In this document: positions 4,976-21,468 of the stretch, piece by piece
Layout: every line of letters starts with the position of its first letter
Position numbering within the stretch: the first letter of the stretch is position 1
Assembly (NCBI RefSeq): GCF_030272705.1
Contig: NZ_JARFYM010000002.1
Span: 124,001-188,000, forward strand
Reading direction: 5' to 3'
Length of the DNA: 64,000 bases
Source of the DNA: Rhizobium mayense
GTDB taxonomy: Bacteria > Pseudomonadota > Alphaproteobacteria > Rhizobiales > Rhizobiaceae
Program-made: the position numbers and the translations under genes
Notes under the pieces: model-generated
The model's database searches: none
Seen by the model: only the letters and a program-made list of their open reading frames with translations
What the model was told of the DNA's origin: nothing

Positions 4976-6091
4976 CTATTCGGCGAGGCGTCCGCCGCAC
5001 ATCGGCGTCGGTACGCCTGTTGTTCCCGGGAAGCTGATCGGGAGGCCTCTCAAGACTCGCACGGCCAAAAACGCGAAGCATTCGGCTTCGACAGCGTCGC
5101 CACGCCAGCCAAGCGTTTCCGCCGAGATCGGCTCCACGCCGGCTCGGGTCTTGAGCATCGACATAATGGTCGGATTACGGCGGCCGCCGCCGCTGACCAC
5201 CAGTTTTTTCGGGCGACGGGGCAGCAGGTCCAGCGCCTTGCCGACAGCGGACGCGGTGAAGGCGGACAGCGTCGCCGCGCCGTCTTCTGGGCCGAGCCCA
5301 TCAGCCATGGAGGCGCCGAAGTCGAAACGATCCAGCGATTTCGGATAGGCTGCACTGAGATAGGGGTGTTGCAGCAGCCTCGCGAGCCTTGCCTCATCGA
5401 CCGTGCCAGCCCGGCCGAGCGCACCGTCCCTGTCCATCTCGCCAAGGCCGTGGGATCCAACGAAATCATTGAGCGGCGCATTGGCCGGCCCGGTGTCGAA
5501 GGCGACGAAATTGCCTTCGCCGTCCGACCAGGTGATGTTGGCGACGCCGCCAAGATTGAGGATGGCGGTATCGTCTCCAGCTCCGGCGCGGCGCAGCAGG
5601 GCGGTATGATAAGCAGCCGCCAAGGGCGCGCCCTGACCGCCTGCGCGCACGTCGGCGGAACGGAAGTCATAGGCGACCTTGGTACCGAGGATGGAGCGCA
5701 TCAATTCGCCGTCGCCAAGCTGGCGCGTATCGCCGAGGCGACCCTCCTGCGGTGCCCGATGCAGCACGGTCTGGCCGTGGAAACCGACTACCCCGATGTC
5801 GGCCATGGTCAGGCCATAGCTTTCGACAAGTTCCTTGACAGCGGCCGACTGCGCGCGCGTCAAGGCCTCCTCGGCTCGCTTGAAGATTTCCGGCTCAAGC
5901 CCGTTGAAATTCCAAATCCGGGCCTGCGCCAATGTCTCTTCCAGCAATGTCCTGATCCATTCCGGATAAGGCGCCAGCACATAAGGACCGAACTCCTCGA
6001 CCCGCTCGCCATCCGTCTTCAGCAGGGCGACATCAATATTGCCGTCGAGAACGGTTCCGGTCATCAGACCGACTGCCCAGATTGGTTCCAT
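4976..6091 (-). CDS. anmK: Anhydro-N-acetylmuramic acid kinase
   Basis: Phosphorylates and hydrolyses 1,6-anhydroMurNAc to MurNAc-6-phosphate, the substrate of MurQ encoded in the same cluster. The product has 371 residues, the normal length. The phosphate-binding start reads [17 protein letters not shown], a variant of the usual MSGTSLDG. Later motifs include [27 protein letters not shown] and [13 protein letters not shown], in family order. The start at 6091 is supported by TAGGAG six bases upstream; the longer frame to 6319 runs through the neighbouring gene. It is the last gene of the minus-strand recycling island and follows the hydrolase gene by 10 bases, so it is almost certainly in the same operon. 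Confidence 0.95.
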
Positions 6092-6101
6092 GATCAAGCT
6101 C

Positions 6102-7121
6102 CTAAGCTCTATTGACGAGATCGCCGACGGTTTGGCGAAGCGCCGCGATCCCACTGTCGAAATGGCGGGTCGGATGAATGCGGTTGGTGAGCAAGGTCCA
6201 GGCCCTGCCCTGATCGAAATCGATCCAGAGACCAGTACCGGTGAAGCCCGTATGACCGATCGTACCTGGCGAGCAAAAGTTGCCTCCGGACCAGCCGTCA
6301 TAGGGCCGCTCCCATCCATGGGTGCGTGTCGCCGACAACGGCGTGCGCATTAAAGCGATCGAGCGTTCGGCGGCGCCGGTCCCAGCGAGCAACCCCTCGG
6401 CAAAATCAAGGATCGAGCCGGCCGTTCCAAACAAACCGGCATGACCGGCGCCCTGCAGAGCCGAACAATTATCATCGTGGACTTCACCCGAGAGAACACG
6501 GTGACGCCAGGTGCAATCCTCCGTCGCGGCTGCCTGATCGGGCGCGGCAGAAAAGGCGAAGCCCGGTCCCGCATCCATGTCGCGGATCGTCTGACCCGTC
6601 AGGCGCTCCAGCGCAAAGCCGAGCAGAATGAAGTTGATGTCAGAATAAACAGGCGGACCGGCCCGCCACTCACGCTGCAGAATGAAGGCGCGCAGCAGGT
6701 CGGGATCGCGGCCGTAGGTATAAAGCGGCTCGACGGCGGGAAAGGGCGTCTGATGGCCGAGGCACTGGCGAAACGTCACCTTCCGCTCCCAGGCAGCCGC
6801 ATCATATTGGCGCAGATCCGGCAGCAGCGAAATCAGCCGTGCATCGAGATCGATCGTACCCGCTTCCGCCAAAGCTAGAATGCGCGGCGTTGTGAAGATG
6901 ACTTTGGTGAGGGAAGCCAAATCGAACCACGTATCGGCGAACATTGGCCGCGTGACCGGGATCTTCTGTGCCAAGCCAACCGCACGGACCATCCGGTTGC
7001 CGTCGCGATCGATCATGCCGAGCACGCCGCCGGGAATGCGTCCGGCCGCGACGGCGGCTTCAACCGGCGCGAACGCCTGATCGAAACGCTGTACGAATTC
7101 CATATTTCCCGCTGCCGTCAT
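6102..7121 (-). CDS. Serine hydrolase of the beta-lactamase/penicillin-binding protein fold
   Basis: 339 residues with the three active-site elements of class C type serine hydrolases: SLTK (nucleophile Ser and Lys, near residue 70), YSD (YxN-like motif) and HTGFTG (KTG-like motif). No signal peptide is visible, so it should be cytosolic. That is unusual for a penicillin-binding-type fold and suggests a peptidase or esterase acting on imported muropeptides rather than on the cell wall. It sits inside the peptidoglycan-recycling operon between the importer ATPase and anmK. A link to cleavage of muropeptides or lactyl-peptide bonds is inference. GGGGAGGGGAGC before the ATG at 7121 supports that start. 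Confidence 0.82.
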
Positions 7122-7145
7122 GCTCCCCTCCCCGTCGCGTCTCTC

Positions 7146-8888
7146 TCAAGCTTCCGCCTGGGCCATGTGATCCGGAGCAAACCGGCGCCATTCCGGCGCA
7201 GCCGGCTCGAAGCCGAGCGGGCGCACCAGTGAGGGGACCTGACGCGTATCCAGCGCAAAACTCTCCCGCCGGCGGTCGACCGTCGGAACCGCCGAGATCA
7301 GCCGCTTGGTGTAGGAATGCTTCGGCTGCGACAGCACCGACGCGGCATCGCCGATCTCGACGATCTGGCCGGCATAGATCACCGCGATCCTGTGTGCGAT
7401 CCGCTCGACGACGGCCATGTCATGCGAGATGAAAAGGTAGGCAAGCCCATACTCGCGCTGCAATTCGATCAACAGGTCCAGGACTTGCGCCTGAACGGAG
7501 ACGTCCAGCGCCGAGACGGCCTCGTCCAGCACAAGAACCGAGGGATTCAACATCAGCGCCCGCGCAATGCACAGCCTCTGGCGTTGTCCGCCCGAGAACT
7601 CATGTGGATAGCGCTCAAGGCTATTCTCGGGCAGGCCGACGCGCTTCAGCAACGTGACCATTCTGTTGCGCGTTTCGCCCGATGCACGGCCGCCGGCGGC
7701 GATAATGGGCTCGGCCAGGATGCTATCGACCCGAAGTCGTGGGTTGAGCGAGGCATAGGGATTCTGAAACACCATCTGCACGGCACTCGTGCGATCAGCC
7801 GTCTTCCCGGCACTCGCAGTAAACGTCCCGCGGGTCGACTTCACCAATCCGAGGATTGCCCGCGCCGTGGTGGATTTGCCCGAGCCGCTCTCGCCAACAA
7901 TCGCCAGCGTTTCGCCTTCCAGCAGATCGAAACCGACGCCCTCGACCGCATGCACCTCGCCGGTCGGACGGCGGAAAAAGCTGCCCGATACCGGAAAGCG
8001 AACAGTCAACCCATCGACCTTTAACGCCGGCGTGGGTTTCTCGGAGTCGTCACGGCTGAAATCCGAGCGCGCCGCGCGGCCCGCCGAAAAATGGGGGACG
8101 GAATGGAGGAGATGCTGCGTATAAGGATGGCTGGGCTTATCGAGGATCTGGTTTAGCTCGCCTTGTTCGACTGCTCGGCCTGCCTGCATCACCATGACCT
8201 TATCAGCGATGCCTGCAACGAGGCCGATGTCGTGAGTGATGAAAATCATCGACATGCCGGTCTCGCGCTTCAGCTCGGCAAGAAGCGCCATGATCTGCGC
8301 CTGCACCGTCACATCCAGCGCCGTGGTCGGCTCGTCGGCGATCAGCAGGCGCGGATTGCAGGCGAGCGCTGTCGCGATCATCACACGCTGCAGCATGCCC
8401 CCGGAAAGCTGGTTCGGGCAATATTTCAGCCGCCGCGTGGCATCGGGGATTCGGACACGATCCAGCGCATCCTTTGCGGCGGCGGTCGCCTGACGGCCGG
8501 TCAAGCCGCGATGCAGGCGGAAACACTCTTCGATCTGTGTGCCGATGGTCAGCACAGGATTGAGCGAGGTCATCGGCTCCTGGAAGATCATGCCGATCTC
8601 GGCGCCACGGATTTTCGTCAATTCCGCTTCGGTTGCCGTCGTCAGGTCGAGAACGCTGTTATCGGTCCGCTTTAGCTTGATCGAGCCACCGATGATGCGG
8701 CCACCGCCGAAATCGACGAGACGGTTGATCGACAGCGCGGTCACCGATTTCCCCGAGCCGCTCTCGCCGACAATCGCCAGCGTCTCGCCGGCGGCAAGAT
8801 CGAAGCTGACGCCGTGGACGATCCTGTTGGCCTCCGGATTGCGGCCAAAGCCCACTTGCAGATCGGAAACAGAAAGCAGAGGGCTCAC
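7146..8888 (-). CDS. Oligopeptide-type ABC transporter, fused double ATPase (YejF/GsiA type)
   Basis: 580 residues containing two complete nucleotide-binding domains. Each has Walker A GESGSGKS (first at residues 41-48), an ABC signature (LSGGMLQRV, then FSGGQRQRL) and a Walker B ending in DE. The oligopeptide-type C-terminal extension is seen after each domain. It powers import through the two permeases encoded immediately upstream, overlapping dppC-like by four bases. The fused arrangement is that of YejF, and YejABEF has been reported as the muropeptide importer of Agrobacterium, so together with MurQ and AnmK the likely substrates are anhydro-muropeptides or murein tripeptides. Confidence 0.92.
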   Translation of the reverse strand: MSPLLSVSDLQVGFGRNPEANRIVHGVSFDLAAGETLAIVGESGSGKSVTALSINRLVDFGGGRIIGGSIKLKRTDNSVLDLTTATEAELTKIRGAEIGMIFQEPMTSLNPVLTIGTQIEECFRLHRGLTGRQATAAAKDALDRVRIPDATRRLKYCPNQLSGGMLQRVMIATALACNPRLLIADEPTTALDVTVQAQIMALLAELKRETGMSMIFITHDIGLVAGIADKVMVMQAGRAVEQGELNQILDKPSHPYTQHLLHSVPHFSAGRAARSDFSRDDSEKPTPALKVDGLTVRFPVSGSFFRRPTGEVHAVEGVGFDLLEGETLAIVGESGSGKSTTARAILGLVKSTRGTFTASAGKTADRTSAVQMVFQNPYASLNPRLRVDSILAEPIIAAGGRASGETRNRMVTLLKRVGLPENSLERYPHEFSGGQRQRLCIARALMLNPSVLVLDEAVSALDVSVQAQVLDLLIELQREYGLAYLFISHDMAVVERIAHRIAVIYAGQIVEIGDAASVLSQPKHSYTKRLISAVPTVDRRRESFALDTRQVPSLVRPLGFEPAAPEWRRFAPDHMAQAEA

Positions 8889-9727
8889 GGATTGGACCTC
8901 CGCATCTTCGGATCGAGAATATCACGCAGCGCATCGCCGAGCAGATTGAAGCCGAGGATGCTAATCATGATGGTGAGGCCTGGGAAGATCAGCAGCCAAG
9001 GTGCGGTCTCCATCAGGTTGCGGCTGTCGCTGAGCATCAGTCCAAGCGAAGAGGCCGGCGGCTGCGTACCGAGGCCCAGGAAGCTCAAACCGGCCTCAGT
9101 TAGAAGCGACCAGGCGAGCGCCAGGGTAATCTGGACGGTCAGTGGTGCAACAAGGTTCAGCAGCAGATGCCGTGTCAGTATATAAGGCTTGCTGCTGCCG
9201 AAGGTGCGGGCCGCATCGACGAAATCGCGCGATTTCAATGATAGCGCCGGCCCGCGCACCACGCGGGTAAAGATCGGCGTGTAGACGATGGCGATAGCGG
9301 CAACGCTGGTCCATGTGCCGGGACCAATGATGGCGATGATCAATAGCGCAAGGAGGATGGCCGGGAATGCCAGCAGGACGTCCATAGTACGCATGATCAG
9401 CCCGTCCCATCGCTTTCCGAACCAGGCGGCCGTCAATCCGAGCACGGTGCCGATGAGGCTTGCGACCGCGACAGAGAGGAAGGCGACGATGAAGGATTCG
9501 CCAATGCCGCTCATGAGCCGGCTCATCACATCGCGCCCGAGCAGATCGGTGCCCATCCAAAATGCGAAACTTGGCGCATGAAGGCGGTTCAAGGGGCTCC
9601 GCATCACCGGATCGTGCGGCGTTAGCCCCAGAGTGCCGAGAATGGCGAGAATGACATAGACACCAACGATCACGCCACCGATGCGGCCGCTCGTATGCCC
9701 GAAAATGGCCTTTCCAATGCGCATCAA
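8885..9727 (-). CDS. ABC transporter permease, DppC/OppC type
   Basis: 280 residues with five to six membrane segments and the inner-membrane component signature near the C-terminus (SLTEAGLSFLGLGTQPPASSLGLML). The N-terminus carries the DppC-type loop HDPVMRSPLNRLHAPS and GTDLLGRDVMSRL. It forms the channel with the DppB-type partner encoded just upstream; the genes overlap by four bases at each end (8885-8888 and 9724-9727), which implies translational coupling. By context it belongs to the peptidoglycan-fragment importer. Confidence 0.92.
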   Translation of the reverse strand: MMRIGKAIFGHTSGRIGGVIVGVYVILAILGTLGLTPHDPVMRSPLNRLHAPSFAFWMGTDLLGRDVMSRLMSGIGESFIVAFLSVAVASLIGTVLGLTAAWFGKRWDGLIMRTMDVLLAFPAILLALLIIAIIGPGTWTSVAAIAIVYTPIFTRVVRGPALSLKSRDFVDAARTFGSSKPYILTRHLLLNLVAPLTVQITLALAWSLLTEAGLSFLGLGTQPPASSLGLMLSDSRNLMETAPWLLIFPGLTIMISILGFNLLGDALRDILDPKMRRSNP

Positions 9728-10683
9728 CCCTCTCCCAGACGAACGCGCGGATCGACCGCGACATAGGCAAGGTCGACGAGAAGATTGACGATCATGAAAT
9801 TGAAAGCGATGAACAGGACGCAGCCTTGGACCAGCGCATAGTCACGCTGTTGGATCGCATCCAGCACCAACCGTCCGAGACCGGGCAGCGCATAGATCTG
9901 CTCGACGAGCACGGCTCCGCCGAGAAGATAACCGAATTCCACGCCGCTCAGCGTCACGACCGGAATGAGCGCGTTGGGCAGCGCATGGCGCCAGATGACG
10001 CCGCGGGACGGCACGCCGCGACTGCGGGCGGTGCGGACATAGTCATCGCTCAGAACGTCCAGCATTGCCGAGCGTACGACGCGTGTGACCGAGGCTGCAA
10101 AGGCAAAGCCGAGCGTCAGCGCCGGCAGGATCATCTGGCCGAGATTGCCGAGCGGATCCTGCAGGAACGGAGTGAACGCGCCCATGGTCGGCAAGACGCC
10201 AAAACCCGCCGAAAGCGCATAGATGATAAGAAGGCCGAGGACGAAATTCGGTGTGGACTGCCCGACGATGGCGACGATGCGCACGGCAAGATCGGACAGC
10301 TTTTCGTTTCGTGTCGCAGCGAAGACGCCGGCAGGCAGGCCGATCAGCAGGGCGATCACCATGGAGAGCAGCGCAAGCTCGAGCGTCAGCGGAAATCGCT
10401 CGAGGATGATGTCGAGCACCGGCTTGCCGTAGGTGACGGAAATGCCGAGATTGCCCTGCAGTACGCCGAACAGCCAATGCCAGTACTGCACGAACCATGA
10501 TTGGTCGATGCCGAAATAGACTGCGAGGGCCTGCCGCTGCTCGGGCGTCAGCAGGCCGGCATTGGTTCCCAGCATCGCTGTGATCGCGTCACCCGGCACC
10601 AGCCGGATGGCGACGAACACGAGGACGGACACTCCCAACATGATCAGTGGGAATGTCGTCAGCCGGCGTGTCAGGTAACCCAT
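9724..10683 (-). CDS. ABC transporter permease, DppB/OppB type
   Basis: 319 residues from the ATG at 10683, beginning MGYLTRRLTTFPLIMLGVSV as in DppB proteins, with six membrane segments and the permease signature GVEFGYLLGGAVLVEQIYALPGLG. The open frame extends to 10773, but the extra 30 residues would be encoded by the intergenic palindromic element, so the internal start preceded by AGAGGACG is preferred. It pairs with the DppC-type permease. The element separates it from the binding-protein gene upstream. Confidence 0.92.
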   Translation of the reverse strand: MGYLTRRLTTFPLIMLGVSVLVFVAIRLVPGDAITAMLGTNAGLLTPEQRQALAVYFGIDQSWFVQYWHWLFGVLQGNLGISVTYGKPVLDIILERFPLTLELALLSMVIALLIGLPAGVFAATRNEKLSDLAVRIVAIVGQSTPNFVLGLLIIYALSAGFGVLPTMGAFTPFLQDPLGNLGQMILPALTLGFAFAASVTRVVRSAMLDVLSDDYVRTARSRGVPSRGVIWRHALPNALIPVVTLSGVEFGYLLGGAVLVEQIYALPGLGRLVLDAIQQRDYALVQGCVLFIAFNFMIVNLLVDLAYVAVDPRVRLGEG

Positions 10684-10691
10684 GGAACGTC

Positions 10692-10798
10692 CTCTAGAGC
10701 AATTCCAGGAAAAGTGCGAAGCGGTTTTCTGTCCGGAATTGCGTAAAAACAAAAGGTTAGAGCGGTTCTGCACTTCATGAAAAGTTGAACCGCTCTAG
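10692..10798. repeat. Rhizobial intergenic mosaic element (RIME-like), inside an operon
   Basis: A 107-base element made of two nested palindromes. GCAATTCC at 10699-10706 pairs with GGAATTGC at 10735-10742, and TAGAGCGGTTC at 10758-10768 pairs with GAACCGCTCTA at 10787-10797. Both ends carry CTCTAGA. The text between the first arms, AAAAGTGCGAAGCGGTTTTC, resembles repeats I associate with rhizobial intergenic elements. It lies between the binding-protein gene and the permease gene of one operon, where it would fold in the transcript and may lower downstream expression or stabilise the upstream message. Confidence 0.8.
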
Positions 10799-10811
10799 AA
10801 CCTGGTATCCG

Positions 10812-12332
10812 TTACTTGATGGATACCTTGCTGAGACCGAAGAGAGAGCCCGTCGGCGTCGGCACGAAGCCCTCGACGTTCTTCTGCTCGGCCGTGTAGC
10901 CGTATGCCGTATAGAGCCAGATCCAGGGCGAGACTTCGGCAATATGCTTTTCGAAGTCGGCGAAAATGACCTTGCGCTTCGCCGGATCGGTTTCGACACG
11001 GCCCTTCTGCATCTGACCGTCCAGCGTATCGTCGATATAGTTGGCGACCTTCTGCAGGTTGCCCGTCTTCGTCCAGTAGCGGTTATACATGGAATAGGGA
11101 TCGGCGCTTCCGCCGTTCAGCGCCACCGCCATGTCGAAATTGCCTTTCAGCCAAGCGTCGACATAGACGTTGAGTTCCATCACCTTGATATCGAGCTTGA
11201 TGCCGATTTCGGCGAGCTGCGACTGGATGACCTGGGCTTCGGCGGTCGCCGTCGGCGGCTCGCCGGTGGCGGCGATCACGGTTGCGGAAAAGCCGTTAGC
11301 AAAGCCCGCGTCGGCCATCAGCTTCTTTGCCTTCTCGACATCGCGCTTGTAGCAGAAGAGCTGGCTCGGATCAGTCGCATAGAGGGGCATAGTCAGCGGG
11401 CCGGTCACCTTGCCTTCGCCGAGCGCTGCCGTGTCCAGCACGTCCTGCCGGTCGATGGCGCAGGAGATCGCCTGACGCACGGCAAGCTGATCCATTGGCT
11501 TGCGCGACGGGTTGAGCTGCAGGACGTTATAGGAAAGCACCGGCGTCCGGGTTAGTTGCAGCTTCGGCTCCTTGGGAACGAGCGTCGCCACCAGCGGGTC
11601 GTTCAGAAGCGCAAAATCGATCTGGCCAGTACGAAGCGATGCCAGGATTGCCGTTTCATCCGGGAGGACGCTGACGTCGATGCCATCGACGCCTACCGTG
11701 CCGCCGGCCCAGGCCTTGTTGGCGCTTAGGACTTCCTTGGAATTCGGAACCCAATTCTCGAGCTTGAAGGGACCGGAACCGATCGCCTTCGTACCGATCG
11801 AGCCGGCGGTGATTTCGCTTGCCGGAACGATGGCGGCGTTGAGGCTGGTCATCGACGTCAGGATCGGAACGTCAGGCTGCGACAGATGGAAGACCACGGT
11901 CGTCGCATCGGGCGTATCGATGCTGGCGATCGAAAGGAAATTGGCGCGGGCGGCGGCACCTGTCGCCTGATCGAGAATGCGCTGGAACGATGCCTTCACG
12001 TCAGCCGAAGTGACGGCAGCGCCGTTCTGGAACTTGGCATTCGGATTGAGCTTGAAGGTCAGCTCCTTGCCATCAGCCGAAAACTGCCAGCTGTCGGCAA
12101 TGGCGGGCACGATCTGCAGATTGCTGTCGAGCCGGACGAGCGGCTCATAGATCAGCTCCAGCAGGCGAATCGAGGAAAAGGCAGTCTGCTTGTGCGGATC
12201 AAGCCCGGTCGCGTCCTGGGACCATGCAAGGCGCAGCGTTGCCGCGTATGCCTCCGTAGAAACCGACGCCATGCCGAGACCCGCCGCCACCGCGACACAC
12301 GAAATCAACTTCCTTGCAAAATGCCTTTTCAT
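10812..12332 (-). CDS. ABC transporter substrate-binding protein, family 5 (oligopeptide type)
   Basis: 506 residues with a Sec signal peptide (basic MKRHFARK, hydrophobic core, AYA cleavage near residue 30). The mature start TLRLAWSQDATGLDPHKQT and later FKLNPNAKFQNGAAVTSADV are the SBP_bac_5 signatures. It captures the substrate in the periplasm for the permeases and fused ATPase encoded downstream. In the context of MurQ and AnmK the ligand is probably a muropeptide or murein peptide; this is inference, since the family also carries nickel, opines and oligosaccharides. AGAGGGAGAAAAGA before the ATG is a good ribosome binding site. Confidence 0.92.
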   Translation of the reverse strand: MKRHFARKLISCVAVAAGLGMASVSTEAYAATLRLAWSQDATGLDPHKQTAFSSIRLLELIYEPLVRLDSNLQIVPAIADSWQFSADGKELTFKLNPNAKFQNGAAVTSADVKASFQRILDQATGAAARANFLSIASIDTPDATTVVFHLSQPDVPILTSMTSLNAAIVPASEITAGSIGTKAIGSGPFKLENWVPNSKEVLSANKAWAGGTVGVDGIDVSVLPDETAILASLRTGQIDFALLNDPLVATLVPKEPKLQLTRTPVLSYNVLQLNPSRKPMDQLAVRQAISCAIDRQDVLDTAALGEGKVTGPLTMPLYATDPSQLFCYKRDVEKAKKLMADAGFANGFSATVIAATGEPPTATAEAQVIQSQLAEIGIKLDIKVMELNVYVDAWLKGNFDMAVALNGGSADPYSMYNRYWTKTGNLQKVANYIDDTLDGQMQKGRVETDPAKRKVIFADFEKHIAEVSPWIWLYTAYGYTAEQKNVEGFVPTPTGSLFGLSKVSIK

Positions 12333-12415
12333 TCTTTTCTCCCTCTGAGCGTCTTAACGCTTCCCCGGCCGGTTTTGGCCGCTTTCATTAAAACCGTTGC
12401 TGCCGCAACGTAAGT

Positions 12416-13375
<960 letters not shown>

Positions 13376-13516
13376 TCAGGGATGGCAAGCTCGATCGATG
13401 ACGATCGGGCAGGCCGCAGCAGCTTTAATTTTCAACGCAACAGAAAGCTGGTCATCAGCCCACGCAGCCGGCCTTTGCGGCTCGTTCGCTGCGAGTTTCC
13501 CTGTTTACTTTTCTTA

Positions 13517-13568
13517 ACATTATGTCCATTTATTCCGATCGTCAATCGCTGTAGGAATAAAATATTCC
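13517..13568 (-). promoter_or_regulatory. murQ promoter with upstream RpiR/MurR-type operator
   Basis: On the minus strand TTGACG (13545-13540), a 17-base spacer and TAATGT (13522-13517) form a good sigma-70 type promoter reading into murQ. Eight bases upstream of the -35 lies the palindrome GGAAT-AAAAT-ATTCC at 13554-13568. The same GGAAT-N5-ATTCC core, at the same distance from the -35, precedes murA. This makes it a likely binding site of the RpiR-family regulator encoded at 15979-16839. Confidence 0.65.
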
Positions 13569-13609
13569 AAATTCGATGTGTCAAACCGGTGATGCGCGCG
13601 ACCGCCATT

Positions 13610-14485
13610 TCAGCGGCTGCAGACCGACTTCCTTGCAAGGATGATGGCGCCCAAGACGGCATCCCCGTCGATGGGTTTCAGGCGGCGGCGGACGTCCGGT
13701 GCGAGCCACGGCTCGAGCGGACTCGACAAGCCGCCAAGCAGGGAAACGCGAGGTGCGCCCTTGTCAAAAAGCGTGCGGATCAGCGTATCAACGTGTTCGG
13801 CCGCGCTCTGGACGATGCGCCGCCCGGCCGCATCTCCCTGGTCTGCGTGGCGCATCACCATCGGCGCCAGAGCGGCGTAGTCCGTTGCAGAGGCACGGTC
13901 CATCCAGGCGACCGCTTCCATCGGATCATTCTGAAAGCGCTGCATGATTTCGGCCAGCAGGGCCGTCTTCTCCTGGCGACCGTCATGCGCGCGCAGTGCA
14001 AGCTGCACCGCCTTCAGTCCGAGATATGCGCCGCTGCCCTCGTCGGAGATCGGAAAGCCATATCCGCCGACCCGCAGGTGGCGCCCTTCGACAAAACCGA
14101 GCCCAATCGATCCCGTCCCGGCAATGACGATCGCGCCGTCACGACCCGAATGGGCGCCGAGACAGGCGCCCTCGCCGTCACTGACGAAATCGATGCTGGC
14201 AAAAGGATGATTTATGCCTCGCAATGCCTCAAGCGCGCCCTTCCGCCCGATCCCCGCGAGCCCAACGCCTGCGTGAATCCGCTTGACCTCGGGCGCGCTA
14301 AGACCGGCCTCCTCAATAGCCGCTCCGAAGGCCCTCGCAATGGAAGCCCAGGCTTCGTCTATTCCGAGACGGGTGGTTGCGGGGCCGGACAGTCCCTGAC
14401 CCAATACTGTGCCGGCCGCATCCTCGATTCTTGCGCGACAACCAGTGCCTCCGCCGTCGATACCAAGAAAATAGCGCGCGCTCAT
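13610..14485 (-). CDS. BadF/BadG-type sugar kinase (N-acetylglucosamine kinase-like)
   Basis: 291 residues of the ASKHA fold. The N-terminal phosphate loop is GIDGGGTGCRARIED, then GTGSIGLGF, and the start of the second domain reads PISDEGSGAYLGLKA, all as in eukaryotic-type GlcNAc kinases and glucosamine kinases of the BadF family. It probably phosphorylates GlcNAc or glucosamine released from cell-wall fragments, though MurNAc is also conceivable. The ATG at 14485 overlaps the stop of the MurA-like gene as ATGA, so the two are translationally coupled; the longer frame to 14515 would overlap murA by more. Confidence 0.85.
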   Translation of the reverse strand: MSARYFLGIDGGGTGCRARIEDAAGTVLGQGLSGPATTRLGIDEAWASIARAFGAAIEEAGLSAPEVKRIHAGVGLAGIGRKGALEALRGINHPFASIDFVSDGEGACLGAHSGRDGAIVIAGTGSIGLGFVEGRHLRVGGYGFPISDEGSGAYLGLKAVQLALRAHDGRQEKTALLAEIMQRFQNDPMEAVAWMDRASATDYAALAPMVMRHADQGDAAGRRIVQSAAEHVDTLIRTLFDKGAPRVSLLGGLSSPLEPWLAPDVRRRLKPIDGDAVLGAIILARKSVCSR

Positions 14486-15738
14486 GACGTCAGCCGCTCG
14501 ATATCTGCGCCGCATAGGCGGAGCTTGCGATCCAGTTGCTCATAGCCACGGTCGAGGTGATAGACGCGGTTGATGATGGTTTCGCCCTCCGACACCAGCG
14601 CCGCGAGCACCAGAGAGACAGAGGCGCGCAGATCGGTCGCCATGACCTGTGCGCCTCGAAGAGGCGCGCCGCCCCGCACCAACGCCGTGGTGCCCTGCAG
14701 CTTGATGTTGGCGCCGAGACGCATCAATTCCGGCACATGCATGAAGCGGTTTTCGAACACCGTCTCGCGGATCAGCGAGGCGCCTTCAGCGCAGCAGGCG
14801 AGCGCCATGAACTGTGCCTGCAGGTCAGTCGGAAAACCGGGATAGGGTTCAGTAGTAATATCGGCGCCCTTGAGCGGACCATCCCTCGAAACAACCAGGC
14901 CGCGGTCGCTCGGCCAGACGCTGACGCCCATGGCCTCCAGCGCCTGCACAACCGAAGCCAGGTTCTCCAGTCTGGCGTGGATCAGTTCAAGCTGGCCGCC
15001 AGTGATCGCGGCTGCAACTGCGTAGGTACCGGCCTCGATCCGGTCGGAAATGCCATGATGCTTGGCGGGCTGCCACGTCGTGCTGCCTTCGATCAGGATG
15101 CGGTGCGTGCCGGCGCCCTCGATGCGGGCGCCCATGGCGCCGAGACAGGCAGCAAGATCGGCCACCTCCGGCTCGCGCGCCGCATTCAAGATCTCCGTCT
15201 CGCCCTTGGCCGCGCATGCCGCCATCATAGCCGTCTCGGTCGCGCCGACAGATGGGGAGCTTAGAACAACGCGCGCGCCCTTCAGCCCGCCAGGGGCCGA
15301 TGCGACGATTAGGCCATTCTCGATCGCAACGTCAGCCCCGAGCGTCGCCAGCGCCTTGATGTGCATGTCGACCGGCCGGGCGCCGATGGCGCAGCCGCCG
15401 GGCAAGGAGACGCGGGCATGCCCGAAGCGCGCCAGCAGCGGTGCCAGCACCAGCACGGTCGCCCGCATACGCCTCACTGTGTCGTAGGAAGTTTCCTTCG
15501 AGACGATGGCGCTTGTATCGATGATCGTGCCGTGCGCCGCACGGTTCACGACGGCGCCATGAAGCGTGACGACACCGAGCATGTTCTCGACATCGGTTAC
15601 AGCGGGCAGGTTCGTCAATTCCAGCGGATGGGGACTGAGCAGCGCCGCCGCGATTTGCGGCAAGGCGGCATTCTTTGCGCCGGAAATCGTCACAGCGCCC
15701 TGCAACCTGTTTCCGCCTGATATCCGCAATCTGTCCAT
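14482..15738 (-). CDS. murA: UDP-N-acetylglucosamine 1-carboxyvinyltransferase (MurA paralogue)
   Basis: 418 residues, the length of E. coli MurA. Transfers enolpyruvate from PEP to UDP-GlcNAc, the first committed step of peptidoglycan precursor synthesis and the target of fosfomycin. Start motif ISGGNRLQGAVTISGAKNAA carries the conserved Lys-Asn; the active-site loop reads SLPGGCAIGARPVDMHI with catalytic Cys116 present, so the enzyme is predicted active and fosfomycin-sensitive at that residue. The ATG at 15738 is chosen because homology-like sequence starts there; upstream frame to 15963 crosses the promoter. Its location at the head of a catabolic recycling island, under the RpiR regulator, is odd and suggests a second, regulated MurA. 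Confidence 0.9.
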   Translation of the reverse strand: MDRLRISGGNRLQGAVTISGAKNAALPQIAAALLSPHPLELTNLPAVTDVENMLGVVTLHGAVVNRAAHGTIIDTSAIVSKETSYDTVRRMRATVLVLAPLLARFGHARVSLPGGCAIGARPVDMHIKALATLGADVAIENGLIVASAPGGLKGARVVLSSPSVGATETAMMAACAAKGETEILNAAREPEVADLAACLGAMGARIEGAGTHRILIEGSTTWQPAKHHGISDRIEAGTYAVAAAITGGQLELIHARLENLASVVQALEAMGVSVWPSDRGLVVSRDGPLKGADITTEPYPGFPTDLQAQFMALACCAEGASLIRETVFENRFMHVPELMRLGANIKLQGTTALVRGGAPLRGAQVMATDLRASVSLVLAALVSEGETIINRVYHLDRGYEQLDRKLRLCGADIERLTS

Positions 15739-15800
15739 GATGTGAAACCCGTCAAGGAGAGGGGTGAAGGAGCAGACGTCAGCCCTCTGCTTCTGGCTCA

Positions 15801-15854
15801 AGATTATTCGGTCATTCCGCCATGTCAACGTAAATTGGAATTTTTTATTCCAAT
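15801..15854 (-). promoter_or_regulatory. murA promoter and shared RpiR/MurR-type operator
   Basis: Minus-strand TTGACA (15828-15823), a 16-base spacer and TAATCT (15806-15801) form a strong promoter for murA. Centred upstream is a palindrome with 8-base arms, ATTGGAAT-N5-ATTCCAAT (15834-15854), whose GGAAT-N5-ATTCC core begins eight bases from the -35. On the plus strand the T-rich centre overlaps the expected -35 region of a TATAAG (15865-15870) box for the regulator gene, so one site could both control murA and auto-regulate the regulator. Confidence 0.7.
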
Positions 15855-15978
15855 CGTTCTCTGCTATAAGGTCCATGGCCGACGGAGCGAAAGCATGGTT
15901 GCCCAGTCTCGGCCGGATGATATCTTGTGGCTCGATTGTGTCGACGCGTGAACCGGCCTCCACGGCCTGAAGGGGCGG

Positions 15979-16839
15979 ATGTCTATCTTAAAGAAAATCA
16001 GCGCGAAGCTCGAAGGCATGGCGCCTGCCGATCGTCAGATCGGGCAATTCATCGTCGAAAATCCCGACCAGATGCTGCGTCTGTCGTCCGCTGCGCTTGC
16101 CGCCGAGACCGGTCGCAGCCAGTCGAGCGTCGTCAAATTCAGCCAGAAACTCGGCTACGCCGGCTACCAGGAGCTGAAGCTCGCAGTCAGCGAGGCCAAA
16201 GCCCAGGAATGGCAGGCCCCAACGGGCATGATCCACGGGACTATCGAAGTGGACGACGGCTATCTGACCATCCTGCAAAAACTGCTTGGCAGCAAGCTGC
16301 AGGCCATGCAACAGACGATTGCCGTCAACAACGAACTCGATATCGACAAGGCGCTGAAGGCGCTTTACGAAGCGCGCCGCATTCATCTCGCCGGCGTCGG
16401 CGCCTCATCGCTGGTCGCTCGCGACTTTTCCTATAAGCTGATGAAGCTCGGGCGCAATGTGCTGCACGACAGCGACAGCCATGTGCAGATGGCCAATGCC
16501 TCGACACTTGGCGCCGACGACCTCCTGTTCGCTCTCTCCTATTCCGGCACCAGCATCGAAACGCTGCGAATCGCAGAACTTGCCAGCCAGCGAAACGCGA
16601 CCGTCATCGCCGTGACCGGTCTTCAAGACAATCCGCTGGCCCATGTCGCCGATATCCGCCTCTATACTGTCGGCGATGAAGACCGCGTCCGCTCCTCGGC
16701 CATCACTGCGCGCGACGCCCAACTGATGCTGACCGACCTGCTGTTCATCCTTTTGATTCAGAGGCAGCCCGACGCCAACGATTACGTACATAATAGCGAA
16801 GCGGCCGTCTCGGTGCTGAAGGCCAAGCAACTGTCATAG
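15979..16839 (+). CDS. murR: RpiR/MurR-family transcriptional regulator with SIS domain
   Basis: 286 residues: an N-terminal HTH_6 domain (about 1-77, with LSSAALAAETGRSQSSVVKF as recognition region) and a C-terminal SIS sugar-phosphate-binding domain (from about 124, HLAGVGASSLVARDF and ALSYSGTSIET). Family members sense phosphosugars such as MurNAc-6-phosphate or GlcNAc-6-phosphate. It is divergent from murA and thus from the whole recycling island, and a palindrome between them recurs before murQ. The name murR is given by context and fold. Whether it represses or activates is open: both operators lie upstream of the -35 boxes. Confidence 0.85.
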   Translation: MSILKKISAKLEGMAPADRQIGQFIVENPDQMLRLSSAALAAETGRSQSSVVKFSQKLGYAGYQELKLAVSEAKAQEWQAPTGMIHGTIEVDDGYLTILQKLLGSKLQAMQQTIAVNNELDIDKALKALYEARRIHLAGVGASSLVARDFSYKLMKLGRNVLHDSDSHVQMANASTLGADDLLFALSYSGTSIETLRIAELASQRNATVIAVTGLQDNPLAHVADIRLYTVGDEDRVRSSAITARDAQLMLTDLLFILLIQRQPDANDYVHNSEAAVSVLKAKQLS

Positions 16840-17141: not shown

Positions 17142-18230
17142 ATGAACATTAGAACGCTTCTTCTCAGCTCCGCGGCGGCGCTCGCCGCCGCCTCCGGTGC
17201 GCATGCCGCCGACGCCATCGTTGCGGCCGAACCGGAGCCTCTTCAGTACGTTCGCATTTGCGATGCCTATGGCACGGGATATTTCTTTATTCCGGGTACC
17301 GAAACCTGCCTGAAGGTCGGCGGCGAAGTTCGCTCCGAAGGTGAATGGTATGACGCTTACAGCCCGACGAACCGCGTCGGCACGCTGTGGCATACCCGCG
17401 CCGAACTCAATCTCGATACCGCAACCGATACCGAATACGGCCCGCTGAAGACCAACATGGTCCTACGTTGGGACTGGCAGGAAGGCGGCACCACCGCCAC
17501 GAAACTGCTGTTTGCCAATATCAGCCTGGGCGGCTTCACCGTCGGCAAGCTCGATTCGCAGTACAACCTCTATGCAGGCTACGCCGGCGACGTCATCAAC
17601 GACGACGTGATCTGGGACGGCCCATACGAACTCAACCAGTTGACCTATAACTACGACGCCGGCAACGGCTTCACGGCGGTCATCTCGCTCGAAGATTCCA
17701 ACTCGGCCGGCGACAGCGATGCCTTCGACGGCGCCTGGGTCACGTCCAAGGCCAACCACTATGCTCCGAACGTCGTTGCCGGTGCTGGCTACAAGTCGGG
17801 CATCTGGGGCGTCAAGGTTGTTGGCGGCTATGACTCGATCGTCGAAGAAGGTGCCATCAAGGCCCGCGTCGACGCCGACTTCGGCGCTTTCTCGGCATTC
17901 TTGATGGGCGGTTGGAACACCGACGGCGACAAGCTGAACCAGTATGCCGGCTCCAACCTGTCGGAAGATTCCTGCCCTCCGGGCCGAGGCGATCTTTGCG
18001 GCTGGGGTGACTGGGCTGCCTGGGGCGGCGTCTCGGTTCCCTTCAACGACAAGCTGAAGTGGAACCTGCAGGTCGCCTATACCGACTCCAAGATCTTCGC
18101 CGCAACCACGAACCTGAAGTTCAATCCGGTTAAGAACCTCCTGATCGAACCAGAAGTGTCTTACACCAACTGGGATTCGATCAACGAAGATCAGTGGGCC
18201 GGTATCCTGCGCTTCCAGCGTAGTTTCTGA
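17142..18230 (+). CDS. Outer-membrane porin, Rhizobiales Omp/RopA family (Porin_2)
   Basis: 362 residues with a classic signal peptide cleaved after AHA near residue 22. The mature start carries the Porin_2 hallmark EPLQYVRICDAYGTGYFFIPGTETCLKVGG in outline, with two cysteines. The rest alternates aromatic and hydrophilic residues as expected for a 16-strand barrel, and ends with LRFQRSF, where the terminal Phe is the outer-membrane assembly signal. It provides general diffusion of small hydrophilic solutes. It has its own promoter and a hairpin terminator after the stop, so it is monocistronic. Confidence 0.93.
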   Translation: MNIRTLLLSSAAALAAASGAHAADAIVAAEPEPLQYVRICDAYGTGYFFIPGTETCLKVGGEVRSEGEWYDAYSPTNRVGTLWHTRAELNLDTATDTEYGPLKTNMVLRWDWQEGGTTATKLLFANISLGGFTVGKLDSQYNLYAGYAGDVINDDVIWDGPYELNQLTYNYDAGNGFTAVISLEDSNSAGDSDAFDGAWVTSKANHYAPNVVAGAGYKSGIWGVKVVGGYDSIVEEGAIKARVDADFGAFSAFLMGGWNTDGDKLNQYAGSNLSEDSCPPGRGDLCGWGDWAAWGGVSVPFNDKLKWNLQVAYTDSKIFAATTNLKFNPVKNLLIEPEVSYTNWDSINEDQWAGILRFQRSF

Positions 18231-18262
18231 TCAGATTGACCTCCGATCAGTAAATGGGGATT

Positions 18263-18291
18263 GGTCCGGTTTCCCTGCCGGACCTTTCCTT
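18263..18291 (+). terminator. Rho-independent-type terminator after the porin gene
   Basis: GGTCCGG (18263-18269) and CCGGACC (18278-18284) form a 7-bp GC-rich stem with an 8-base loop, followed by TTTCCTT. It lies 33 bases past the porin stop codon. It also precedes the end of the convergent Rrf2 gene and might work in both directions. Confidence 0.65.
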
Positions 18292-18311
18292 GCCGCAGGT
18301 TGAGGGACACT

Positions 18312-18803
18312 TCAGCTTTGCAGTGTTTCGAGGCTCTTGGCAGCCTTGGGACAGAAATCGGCCGCATGCAATTCCTGCTGCTCGATTTCCTTCAATTGAG
18401 AAAGCGCGTCCGCGATCGTCAAGCCGTTGAGCGCTCCCATCACCGCAAATTCCGCCCGGCGCGCCACACTTTCGAATAGCACCGCGATATGTGTGCTCAC
18501 AGGACAGCGGCACGGCACGTCATCGCGTGCGGCCCATAGCCGTTTGTCGAAAATGACTGAGCTATAGACGTCGTGAAGGGTGATTTCGTTCGCCGGTCGT
18601 CCTAGACGGATGCCGCCATTCTTCCCAGCCGACGAGATCAATATTCCGCTTTGGCTAAGCGGCACGAGCAATTTCCGAACAAAACTGGGATTGGAGCCGA
18701 GACCAGCGGCCAATTCAAAGCTTGTACACCGTAGGCCGTCCCGGTTGTGAACGGCTATAGTCAATACCATCTGAAATGCCGTCGGAAACCGAGTGTCTAT
18801 CAT
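18312..18803 (-). CDS. Rrf2-family transcriptional regulator
   Basis: 163 residues. N-terminal winged helix with the Rrf2 pattern: RFPTAFQMVLTIA, LAAGLGSNPSFVRKLLVPLSQSGIL and GKNGGIRLGRPANEITLHDVY. The Fe-S sensing members have three cysteines spaced by about five residues; here only Cys98 and Cys100 (CRC) lie in that region, plus Cys26, so a standard IscR/NsrR cluster is doubtful and a thiol-based or other sensor is more likely. It is convergent with the porin gene. Targets are unknown. Confidence 0.85.
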   Translation of the reverse strand: MIDTRFPTAFQMVLTIAVHNRDGLRCTSFELAAGLGSNPSFVRKLLVPLSQSGILISSAGKNGGIRLGRPANEITLHDVYSSVIFDKRLWAARDDVPCRCPVSTHIAVLFESVARRAEFAVMGALNGLTIADALSQLKEIEQQELHAADFCPKAAKSLETLQS

Positions 18804-19028
18804 TAAATTTTTGCAGCCTAGCCTCGCCTAACGATCCAGTGTCGCAGTTAAATGGCAAAATAGCCCGCTGTAAAGTAGAACAAATGCTCTTACAGACTTT
18901 GCCACCAAAACGAGAGATTACTGCACCGCACAGAATTAGGTGCGATGCACACAAAAATACTTTCAATCGGCGCAAAGCTCCGCGAAATCGATTTCAATCT
19001 CCGGAGTTATACGCAGGACAATTGCCGC

Positions 19029-19625
19029 TTACGGCTTGACGCCGTTGAGATGGCTTTCGAGGAAATGCAGATTGTCCTGTCCCCAATAGAGTTCGCCATC
19101 ATGAAGGAATGACGGAAAGCCGAAGACGCCGTTCTTGATGGCAAACTCACGATCCGCCGCCCACTTGCCCCGCACATCGACGTCACCTTCCCGCTTCGAA
19201 AGCGCGTCGCCATCGAAGCCCGCAGCGGTGGCGATCGCCTTGCGCACTTCGGGATTGCCGATATCCTCGCCGCGGCCCCAGAACGCTTCCTGCAGGACCT
19301 TGGTCAAGTCGAGCCACGGCTCGCCGTCGAGATAGGCGGCGATGACCATAAACGCTGCCGGTGCCGGATCGGCAAGCGGCGGGCGATTTTCCAGAAGCAG
19401 ATTCTTGCCGCGGAAACCGGCCCAGCGCTTGAGATCCCGCTGCCAATATTGCCGACGGGCTTCGGGTCTATTGCGTGAGAAGATGCCGCCATTCTCTTCG
19501 ACGACGGTGGTGAGATAAGGCCTGATTTCCGCGCCCGCCTTTTCGACGAGATCGAGAAATGGCTCAAGGCCGATATACGACCAGGGCGAGCCGATGGAAA
19601 AAACATAATCGATAATTTTGGTCAC
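19029..19625 (-). CDS. 2-hydroxychromene-2-carboxylate isomerase-like protein (DsbA/GST-kappa fold)
   Basis: About 198 residues from a GTG at 19625. The start IIDYVFSIGSPWSYIGLEPF is the thioredoxin-fold N-terminus of HCCA isomerases with the glutathione-linked Ser at the position of DsbA cysteine. The C-terminus reads FGFPSFLHDGELYWGQDNLHFLE, also typical. Members isomerise aromatic degradation intermediates or act as glutathione transferases; the substrate here cannot be told. The open frame extends to 19715 but the added residues do not look like the family. It is divergent from the frameshifted SDR gene, with which it may have formed a degradation pair. Confidence 0.82.
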   Translation of the reverse strand: MTKIIDYVFSIGSPWSYIGLEPFLDLVEKAGAEIRPYLTTVVEENGGIFSRNRPEARRQYWQRDLKRWAGFRGKNLLLENRPPLADPAPAAFMVIAAYLDGEPWLDLTKVLQEAFWGRGEDIGNPEVRKAIATAAGFDGDALSKREGDVDVRGKWAADREFAIKNGVFGFPSFLHDGELYWGQDNLHFLESHLNGVKP

Positions 19626-19814
19626 TGTCTGCCGCGTCCCGTGAATGATGATGAAACCCCGTAGATTTTGACCAGCAAGGCGAAGGATACGCAAGCGCCA
19701 CGGCGCAATTTCCATAACGATATCGTTACCCGGCTCGGGAAGATGCGGGCTGTACTCCGCGATCCCCAGGACATAGCCTCCGGCCCCGATTGCAACCTAT
19801 CTGGAGAAATTCCC

Positions 19815-20596
19815 ATGGACTTGGGTCTTGGCGACAAGGTCGTTCTGATTACCGGCGGGTCGAAGGGCATCGGTTATGCCTGCGCCAGCCTGTTCCAGTC
19901 CGAGGGCGCACATGTCGCCATTTGCTCGCGAGCGCAACCCAATATTGACGCAGCTCTCTCCCGTCTTCCTGGAGCCCATCCCATGGCTATGCCGCCGACC
20001 TAACTTCCGACCGACAGGCCCTGGAGGTCGTCGACAAGGTCGAAAACGACGTCGGTCCGATCGATATTCTCGTCAATAGCGCCGGTGCCGCCATGCGCAC
20101 GCCGGCGCAGGACCTGACCCCATCCGCGTGGCGGGCGGCAATGGAGGCCAAGTATTTTTCCTACATCAACGTTCTGGACCCGGTCATCAAGCGCATGGCG
20201 ACGCGCGGCTCGGGCACAATCGTCAATATCATCGGCAATGGCGGCAAAGTCGCCTCGCCGACCCATCTCGCCGGCGGTGCAGCCAATGCCGCGTTGATGC
20301 TCGCGAGTGTCGGCCTCGCCAATGCCTATGCCAGCCAGGGCGTGCGTGTCGTCGGCCTCAACCCCGGCCTCACCGAGACGGAACGCGTTGCCGAGGGCAT
20401 AAAGGCCGAGGCCAAGCTCGCCGGCGCCACCCAGGAAGATGCCTTGGCCGCCGCCCTGCGCCGCATCCCTATCGGCCGCATGGCAAGTCCGGAAGACATC
20501 GCCAATGTCGTCGCCTTCCTGAGTTCGCCCAGGGCAAGCTATGTCACCGGCGTCGTGATCAGCATGGATGGGGCGCAGGTTCCGACTGTGGTCTGA
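19815..20596 (+). pseudogene. Short-chain dehydrogenase/reductase family gene, interrupted by one frameshift
   Basis: The first part (19815-20003) encodes the Rossmann start LGDKVVLITGGSKGIGYACA and then stops at TAA. From about 19985 the frame shifted by one base continues with GYAADLTSDRQALEVVD, then DILVNSAGAAM, on to ISMDGAQVPTVV at 20596. A single missing base near 19979-19985 (context GCCCATCCCATGGC) explains both parts. The continuation has PTHLAGGAANAALM where normal SDRs have the YxxxK catalytic pair, so it belongs to a divergent subgroup that may not use the standard Tyr-Lys chemistry. It may be a true pseudogene or a sequencing error. Confidence 0.8.
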
Positions 20597-20609
20597 CAGC
20601 GGCTCCCTG

Positions 20610-21467: not shown

Positions 21468-21468
21468 A

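What the first reader, a model, noticed from the sequence alone, without database searches (positions are those of the whole stretch)
4976..16839. Peptidoglycan-recycling island with its own MurA paralogue
On the minus strand, in transcription order: MurA, BadF/GlcNAc-type kinase, MurQ, family-5 binding protein, DppB, DppC, fused YejF-type ATPase, cytosolic beta-lactamase-fold hydrolase, AnmK; a divergent MurR/RpiR gene heads it. A complete import-to-GlcNAc-6-P route for anhydro-muropeptides is readable. The unexpected member is MurA, a biosynthetic enzyme with intact catalytic Cys116, at the head of a catabolic cluster. It may let the cell tie new precursor synthesis to the supply of recycled wall, or provide an inducible, fosfomycin-relevant second MurA. 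Known: AnmK, MurQ and Yej roles. Inferred: the coupling.
Basis: partly seen in the sequence, partly recalled or inferred. Interest (0 to 1): 0.75.

Follow-up and report, generated by a model that had tools for sequence, protein, structure and literature searches.

The report
Salvage operon with dedicated MurA twin
In soil bacteria of the Rhizobium group, genes for salvaging cell-wall fragments include a second, intact copy of MurA, the first wall-building enzyme, with the same DNA motif (a predicted control site) in front of it as in front of MurQ, the enzyme predicted to destroy the salvaged wall sugar, so the cell likely switches on rebuilding whenever it switches on breakdown.

Summary
The gene order is confirmed. 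The island's MurA (MurA2) is a true second murA: a housekeeping copy lies elsewhere (53% identical); the other two family members are AroA. All 58 distinct MurA2 sequences collected keep the catalytic residues, Cys115 included, and all 58 are directly followed by a BadF-type kinase. In all 25 genomes found with MurA2 by whole-genome sampling, a murQ lies on the same contig (23 within 2.6 kb). A 15-bp palindrome, GGAATN5ATTCC, occurs exactly twice in the 64-kb window: before murA2 and before murQ, each 8 bp from a -35 box. It stands before murA2 in 40 of 40 MurR-type loci of relatives (3 with one mismatch), even where the two units lie 20 kb apart. So murA2 and murQ are predicted to form one MurR regulon. 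The genome also has AmgK- and MurU-like genes, the salvage route that bypasses MurA. Best explanation (inferred): MurQ drains that bypass and MurA2 makes up the lost UDP-MurNAc. All 23 MurA2 genomes tested have AmgK, but only 2 of 10 MurA2-negative MurQ-I genomes do. This is confounded by kinship (genus level p = 0.06), and many genomes with a divergent MurQ lack MurA2. My paper searches showed no description of it.

The parts
15979..16839 (+). MurR/RpiR-type regulator (HTH_6 + SIS), divergent
   Evidence: a MurR relative over 55% identity lies in 40 of the 50 longer loci that hold MurA2 (the 10 without: L022, cut by a contig end, and L123-L126, L257-L260, L265)
14482..15738 (-). MurA2, UDP-GlcNAc enolpyruvyl transferase paralogue, 418 aa
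   Evidence: TIGR01072 529 bits; catalytic residues invariant in 58 of 58; own group in the tree; dN/dS 0.03-0.07
13610..14485 (-). BadF/NagK/MurK-type sugar kinase, overlapping the murA2 stop (ATGA)
   Evidence: PF01869; PDB 1zc6 E 1.7e-45, 8zo3 (MurNAc/GlcNAc kinase) E 1.2e-22; directly behind MurA2 in 58 of 58
15837..15851 (.). predicted MurR operator 1 (GGAATN5ATTCC) before murA2
15801..15828 (-). sigma70-like promoter before murA2 (TTGACA, 16 bp, TAATCT), read by eye
   Evidence: sequence; operator to -35 spacing 8 bp
13554..13568 (.). predicted MurR operator 2 before murQ
13517..13545 (-). sigma70-like promoter before murQ (TTGACG, 17 bp, TAATGT), read by eye
   Evidence: sequence
12416..13339 (-). 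MurQ, MurNAc-6-phosphate etherase
   Evidence: TIGR00274 424 bits, cut-off 302
10812..12332 (-). family-5 periplasmic binding protein
   Evidence: PF00496; PDB relatives AgaA, YliB, dipeptide-binding protein
9724..10773 (-). DppB-type permease
   Evidence: PF00528, PF19300
8885..9727 (-). DppC-type permease
   Evidence: PF00528
7146..8888 (-). fused double ATPase, GsiA-like
6102..7121 (-). beta-lactamase-fold serine hydrolase without an evident signal peptide (PBP4B/YfeW-like, below cut-off; possible MurNAc-L-Ala amidase)
   Evidence: PF00144 116 bits; PRK03642 58 bits, cut-off 385
4976..6091 (-). AnmK, anhydro-MurNAc kinase, the only copy found in the genome

Best explanation
MurA2 is likely the make-up MurA of a predicted MurR-controlled muropeptide-salvage regulon: when MurR lets go, MurQ and the kinase would pull MurNAc away from the MurA-bypassing AmgK-MurU shunt, and the co-induced MurA2 would rebuild the UDP-MurNAc that the shunt no longer supplies. 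Shown: two murA genes; MurA2 intact and conserved; the MurA2-kinase pairing; the MurQ linkage; the same operator-and-promoter layout at murA2 and murQ; AmgK- and MurU-like genes side by side in the same genome; a single AnmK, inside the island, upstream of both branches. Inferred: that MurR binds GGAATN5ATTCC and senses MurNAc-6-P; that the kinase accepts MurNAc and/or GlcNAc; that the hydrolase is a MurNAc-L-Ala amidase; that MupP is present; that UDP-MurNAc supply is what MurA2 restores.
For: Two murA copies, the other two family members scoring as AroA over its cut-off. Tree: MurA2 (35 rows) plus 3 more distant murQ-linked rows form one 38-row group with SH-aLRT 100, apart from all other MurA rows. 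The kinase follows MurA2 in 58 of 58. MurQ on the same contig in 25 of 25 MurA2 genomes: 18 of 247 in the family sample, 5 further of 249 in the order sample, 2 further of 289 in the class sample. In the family sample MurA2 is in 0 of 139 genomes without MurQ, in 15 of 20 with MurQ over the cut-off and in 3 of the 227 others (p 3e-17). Operator: 2 exact sites in 64 kb, at murA2 and at murQ. Before murA2 it is exact in 37 and one mismatch off in 3 of the 40 MurR-type loci; before murQ (over 60% identity) exact in 47, one mismatch in 4, none in 1 of 52 loci (loci are related and a few repeat the same genome). In Nitratireductor G374 and its sister G285, with MurR-murA2-kinase 20-23 kb from murQ, both units keep it (murQ of G374 with one mismatch). 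AmgK: 9 of 9 MurA2-positive MurQ-I genomes tested against 2 of 10 MurA2-negative ones (p 7e-4); with 5 further named and 9 divergent-MurQ genomes, 23 of 23 tested MurA2 genomes have AmgK and MurU hits. dN/dS 0.03-0.07. Literature, passages: proteobacteria usually have either MurQ or AmgK-MurU, and Pseudomonas blocked in the shunt does not make up UDP-MurNAc de novo (PMC5371407); UDP-MurNAc formation proposed as a bottleneck in Caulobacter (PMC13046382); the shunt is used by the relative Agrobacterium (PMC9790009).
Against: The AmgK association is confounded by kinship: by genus it is 6 of 6 against 2 of 6, p 0.06. Two MurA2-negative MurQ-I genomes (G294, G360) have AmgK and MurU. Four of the eight AmgK-negative genomes (G005, G140, G201, G235, one genus) still have a weak MurU-like match of 36-39%. 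A divergent MurQ type, below the NCBI cut-off, occurs without MurA2 in 85 of the 88 family genomes that have only that type, while MurU is in 223 of 249 genomes of the order; the rule therefore holds at best for MurQ-I. The own AmgK and MurU score best against their own NCBI models but below the curated cut-offs (210 against 500; 215 against 370 bits). MupP, NagA and NagZ were not checked. No expression or activity data. With one mismatch allowed the motif count in the window (2, both exact) is at chance (2.29 expected); the case rests on exactness, position and conservation.
Confidence: 0.45

Rival explanations
1. General nutrient coupling: muropeptides signal a food supply, and MurA2 simply raises wall synthesis for growth.
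For: Shared predicted operator with murQ and the importer unit; import genes in the same island.
Against: It does not explain why all eight AmgK-negative MurQ-I genomes (G396, G452, G316, G005, G140, G201, G235, G137) lack MurA2. In the five of these whose murQ neighbourhood was fetched, four have no kinase relative there and G137 has only a 34% one.
Confidence: 0.25
2. MurA2 has shifted function: another sugar substrate, loss of UDP-MurNAc feedback, or a regulatory role of the kind known for MurA in coordinating wall and outer membrane in Pseudomonas (PMC9995270, search listing only; the detail recalled).
For: 21 positions are typical of MurA2 and rare in other MurA, among them Ser93 to Thr and the position of E. 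coli Lys160, which is Ser in 51 of 58 (E. coli numbering recalled).
Against: The catalytic and PEP-binding positions listed and the SVG loop are invariant in 58 of 58; position 160 also varies among the other MurA (Lys in only 35 of 77).
Confidence: 0.15
3. Backup MurA for fosfomycin tolerance by dosage.
For: A second active-looking MurA could titrate the drug.
Against: Cys115, the fosfomycin target, is invariant in 58 of 58; in the samples MurA2 was not found in a genome without MurQ; it is tied to a sugar kinase.
Confidence: 0.08
4. Chance linkage without functional meaning.
For: Gene order alone can persist in close relatives.
Against: Linkage holds across orders with otherwise different islands; after a 20-kb split the operator is kept; dN/dS 0.03-0.07.
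Confidence: 0.03

Closest known systems
E. coli murR-murQ-murP-yfeW divergon and B. subtilis murQRP-amiE-nagZ-ybbC (PMC5061867, passages read)
   Same: MurR-type regulator, MurQ and a PBP4B or amidase gene; the E. coli murR is divergent
   Different: ABC peptide importer instead of the PTS MurP; AnmK inside; a MurA paralogue and BadF kinase heading one of two operator-controlled units
Pseudomonas-type AnmK-MupP-AmgK-MurU shunt, also in Caulobacter and Agrobacterium (PMC5371407, PMC13046382, PMC9790009; passages read)
   Same: a TsaE-AmgK fusion and a MurU-like gene lie side by side in the same genome
   Different: described as an alternative to MurQ in proteobacteria; here both occur and share one AnmK
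Paired MurA isozymes of Gram-positive bacteria (MurAA/MurAB recalled; the Listeria murA/murZ pair is mentioned in PMC8959180, passages read)
   Same: two intact MurA paralogues in one genome
   Different: here the paralogue forms its own group beside alphaproteobacterial MurA and is tied to a sugar kinase and MurQ
MurK, MurNAc/GlcNAc kinase (PMC10465942, passages read; PDB 8zo3)
   Same: same kinase superfamily; in a hand-made mapping (human NagK letters recalled) no bulky Glu or His at the lactyl-facing positions
   Different: closer by sequence to 1zc6, a probable GlcNAc kinase; substrate untested

Membership tests
MurA (UDP-GlcNAc 1-carboxyvinyltransferase) | TIGR01072 equivalog score above cut-off | tested here: met
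   529.4 bits against 392.7
MurA (UDP-GlcNAc 1-carboxyvinyltransferase) | K22, N23, R91, C115, R120, D305, R331, D369, R371, R397 (E. coli numbering, recalled) | tested here: met
   invariant in 58 of 58 MurA2 and 77 of 77 other MurA
MurA (UDP-GlcNAc 1-carboxyvinyltransferase) | enolpyruvyl transfer to UDP-GlcNAc | not testable with these tools
   needs an enzyme assay
MurR-MurQ MurNAc divergon | RpiR/MurR gene divergent from the MurNAc genes | tested here: met
   252 bits for PRK11557 (MurR/RpiR family), below that model's cut-off of 355
MurR-MurQ MurNAc divergon | MurQ equivalog | tested here: met
   TIGR00274 424 bits against 302
MurR-MurQ MurNAc divergon | PTS transporter MurP in the cluster | tested here: not met
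   a Dpp/Gsi-type ABC importer sits in its place
Pseudomonas-type MurU shunt | AmgK and MurU in the genome | tested here: inconclusive
   best NCBI models are AmgK (209.6 bits, cut-off 500) and MurU (215.4 bits, cut-off 370), below both cut-offs; the two genes are adjacent and AmgK is fused to TsaE
Pseudomonas-type MurU shunt | MupP phosphatase | not tested
YejBEF-YepA muropeptide importer | YejF and YejB scores above cut-off | tested here: not met
   548.7 against 834 and 109.3 against 445 bits
NagK (NagK_SO3507 type) | score above the NF046058 cut-off | tested here: not met
   279.8 against 370 bits

The most novel reading that the evidence does not exclude
These bacteria run both MurNAc salvage routes, described for proteobacteria as alternatives, and switch between them at MurNAc-6-phosphate: a MurR regulon built of two separately promoted units turns on destruction (MurQ, kinase) together with a dedicated MurA2-kinase cassette that keeps UDP-MurNAc constant while the MurU shunt is starved. 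To my knowledge this would be the first MurA isozyme assigned to making up for the salvage of its own pathway's product.
Probability: 0.4. Interest if true: 0.75.

Novelty: new variant of a known kind. Interest (0 to 1): 0.6.

Why it matters
MurA is the committed step of wall synthesis and the target of fosfomycin. A MurA isozyme placed by its operator-like site in a wall-salvage regulon makes testable how a cell balances eating wall sugar against rebuilding it, and suggests how MurQ and the MurA-bypassing shunt, described as alternatives in proteobacteria, can live in one cell. It also gives a concrete, conserved candidate operator (GGAATN5ATTCC) for MurR-type regulators in Rhizobiales, and a MurA2-kinase cassette to look for elsewhere. 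If fosfomycin susceptibility depends on muropeptide supply in such species, this could be the reason.

Tried and rejected
Simple duplication of the housekeeping murA was rejected: MurA2 does not group with the MurA of its own genome. A Gram-positive-type origin was considered because of the SVGATE loop, but that loop is also in 30 of 77 other MurA rows. Fosfomycin-insensitive target: rejected, Cys115 is invariant. MurA2 as needed whenever any MurQ and AmgK coexist: rejected for the divergent MurQ type. The second MurA of G222 (57%) groups with general alphaproteobacterial MurA and is not counted as MurA2; G533 has two MurA copies of about 60%, of which one was in the tree, outside the MurA2 group. 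The MurA2 group without L173-L175 has only weak support (25); with them 100. Kinase substrate from sequence: a hand mapping onto MurK positions is compatible with MurNAc, but the paper says MurNAc binding cannot be identified from sequence; left open. Structure prediction was not used, as MurA relatives of known structure match along the whole length. PMC13041923 (abstract and passages) was read because it deals with an unusual MurNAc route; it concerns mycobacteria, with murA doubled in one strain by a chromosomal duplication, and does not bear on this arrangement.

Rows dropped: 20 near-identical MurA rows before the tree (115 of 135 used). MurA2 absence in L039, L059 and L071 was judged only from the fetched locus, so these were left out of the Fisher test (their AmgK: none, a weak 33% match, none), as was L041, whose MurA2 state is unknown. 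L037, L044 and L068 lie in genomes that repeat G321, G374 and G452 (same match coordinates or contig length). The AmgK or MurU state of seven MurA2-positive MurQ-I family genomes (G432, G295, G378, G384, G439, G480, G291) was not tested. Family-sample absence of MurA2 means no match at E 1e-145 or better. The composite operator pattern found sites in 47 of 66 sources; it missed several Mesorhizobium loci that do have exact palindromes, so the extra half-site is not universal.

Papers: the searches, for murA with murQ, recycling, rhizobia, AmgK or paralogue, listed no paper that describes this arrangement by title or abstract start; I looked into six of the papers found in all searches by passages only, and most subscription journals are not held.
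Full report
What is there. The ten ORFs of the finding are real and correctly named. The closest named relatives by MurQ are Rhizobium sp. BK313, Rhizobium sp. ICMP 5592, R. rhizogenes and R. leucaenae, so the host is taken to be of the Rhizobium tropici group (inference). On the minus strand: MurA2 (14482-15738), BadF-type kinase (13610-14485, ATGA overlap), a 270-bp gap, MurQ, family-5 binding protein, DppB, DppC, fused GsiA-like ATPase, beta-lactamase-fold hydrolase, AnmK. MurR is divergent at 15979-16839. The importer looks Dpp/Gsi/Opp-like; the Yej models stay far below their cut-offs. The hydrolase is a PF00144 protein with only a weak link to PBP4B/YfeW (58 bits against 385), and its substrate is open.

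Second murA. The own genome has four members of the EPSP synthase family. One is the island's MurA2; one is the housekeeping MurA (L090; TIGR01072 545 bits; 53% identical to MurA2); two score as AroA over the TIGR01356 cut-off (345 and 446 against 287). AnmK is single and lies in the island.

MurA2 is old, intact and selected. In a tree of 115 MurA proteins, the 35 MurA2 rows and three more distant rows that are also murQ-linked form one group with SH-aLRT 100, apart from all other MurA rows, including that of the same genome (the group of 35 alone has support 25). The catalytic residues are invariant in 58 of 58 MurA2. Against seven Rhizobium relatives dN/dS is 0.033-0.068. Twenty-one positions are typical of MurA2.

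Linkage. The kinase lies directly behind MurA2 on the same strand in 58 of 58 (distance -31 to +55 bp). Whole-genome samples: order, MurA2 of at least 67% identity in 8 of 249 genomes; family, 18 of 247 at E 1e-145 or better; class, 52 of 289 passed a laxer threshold, of which the own genome and 2 others are MurA2 and 49 are 56-61% matches (those of the 49 that were in the tree fell outside the MurA2 group; the rest were not placed). Together 25 genomes carry MurA2. In 25 of 25 a MurQ is on the same contig, in 23 within 2.6 kb, in two (G374, G285) 20-23 kb away. G374 is Nitratireductor by contig match. In those two the unit MurR-MurA2-kinase stands by itself. In the family sample 15 of 20 genomes with MurQ over the NCBI cut-off have MurA2, 3 of 88 with only a divergent MurQ, and 0 of 139 without MurQ. 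Outside the MurR-type islands the triad MurA2-kinase-MurQ occurs with a divergent MurQ, and in two genomes (L125, L126) a NamZ gene lies nearby (PF07075 and PF20732 on the L125 copy).

Shared operator. GGAATN5ATTCC occurs exactly twice in the 64-kb window, at 15837-15851 before murA2 and 13554-13568 before murQ. In both cases a -35 box follows after 8 bp, with a further GGAAT half-site in the spacer. With one mismatch allowed the number in the window is what chance gives (2 against 2.29), so the evidence is exactness, position and conservation. Before murA2 the site is exact in 37 and one mismatch off in 3 (L026, L029, L037) of 40 MurR-type loci; before murQ of over 60% identity it is exact in 47, one mismatch off in 4 (L036, L041, L044, L261) and missing in 1 (L266) of 52 loci. 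Loci L005-L041 hold 67 exact sites against 0 in five block-shuffled sets. These loci are related, and some repeat a genome, so they are not independent. A composite pattern (palindrome, -35, half-site) that allowed 6-11 bp found 74 sites in 47 of 66 sources, with spacing 8 or 9 in 73. The site stands before murQ in islands without MurA2 (L039, L059, L068, L071, L267-L269, L271) and before both separated units in G374 and G285, in G374's murQ with one mismatch. It is not seen before murA2 in the MurR-free islands (L123-L126, L257-L260, L265; L123 has one exact match elsewhere). None of the four other own-genome loci L089-L092 has an exact site. That MurR binds it is inferred.

Two salvage routes in one cell. 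The own genome has a TsaE-AmgK fusion and a MurU-like gene side by side. Their best NCBI models are AmgK and MurU, but below the curated cut-offs (210 against 500, 215 against 370 bits). In Agrobacterium a Tn-seq screen pointed to AnmK, MupP, AmgK and MurU for reuse of MurNAc (PMC9790009, passages). Borisova et al. write that proteobacteria, particularly beta and gamma, have either MurQ or AmgK-MurU, and that Pseudomonas blocked in the shunt has less UDP-MurNAc and does not compensate by de novo synthesis (PMC5371407, passages). Work on Caulobacter proposes UDP-MurNAc formation as a bottleneck (PMC13046382, passages). Among MurQ-I genomes checked over the whole genome for both MurA2 and AmgK, 9 of 9 MurA2-positive and 2 of 10 MurA2-negative have AmgK (p 7e-4; by genus 6 of 6 against 2 of 6, p 0.06). 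With five named MurQ-I genomes (G780-G783, G785) and nine MurA2 genomes with a divergent MurQ (G026, G208, G051, G084, G591, G596, G341, G463, G408), 23 of 23 tested MurA2 genomes have AmgK and MurU matches (G591 and G596 at 39-40%). Four AmgK-negative genomes of one genus keep a weak MurU-like match of 36-39%. Of the MurQ-I type neighbourhoods without MurA2, none of L039, L059, L068, L071, L266-L269, L271 and L272 shows a relative of the kinase; L270 shows a 34% one.

Mechanism. AnmK would turn imported anhydro-MurNAc into MurNAc-6-P, the predicted inducer and branch point. Without induction the shunt would carry it to UDP-MurNAc. With induction MurQ would burn it to GlcNAc-6-P and D-lactate, the kinase would phosphorylate free sugar, and MurA2 would take over the supply of UDP-MurNAc from UDP-GlcNAc. 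In genomes without AmgK there is no shunt to lose, and MurA2 was absent from the eight such MurQ-I genomes. Against it: G294 and G360 have AmgK and MurQ-I but no MurA2; divergent-MurQ genomes mostly have no MurA2 (8 neighbourhoods looked at, none with it); kinship is not corrected; MupP is untested; there are no expression or activity data.

Verdict. A real, conserved MurA isozyme that shares a predicted operator with MurQ in a salvage island, not described in the papers my searches listed: a new variant of a known kind.

Noticed in passing
L125 11517-12719, L126 11502-12704: A NamZ gene (exo-N-acetylmuramidase family, by Pfam on the L125 copy) lies near the MurA2-kinase-MurQ triad in two genomes of one family, without the ABC importer nearby: a differently fed version of the cluster.
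   Followed up: partly
L273-L280: A divergent MurQ type, often beside a distant BadF kinase and a SIS-domain protein, is common (88 of 247 family genomes have only this type) and mostly lacks MurA2; whether it is a MurNAc-6-P etherase is unclear.
   Followed up: partly
L261-L264 (G374, G285): In Nitratireductor the MurR-MurA2-kinase unit sits 20-23 kb from MurQ and the importer, yet both units keep the operator (one with a mismatch).
   Followed up: yes
L009, L016-L021, L130, L257-L260, L265: In 13 loci 1.0-1.6 kb separates the kinase from murQ; in some of these murA2 or another gene lies between, in others the content was not identified.
   Followed up: no
G000:C80 (L091) and G000:C65 (L092): The genome carries two AroA-type EPSP synthases (345 and 446 bits).
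   Followed up: partly
window 17142-23010: Neighbours outside the island look ordinary: Porin_2, Rrf2 regulator, DsbA-like protein, quinolinate phosphoribosyltransferase and a FAD-binding protein next to it.
   Followed up: no
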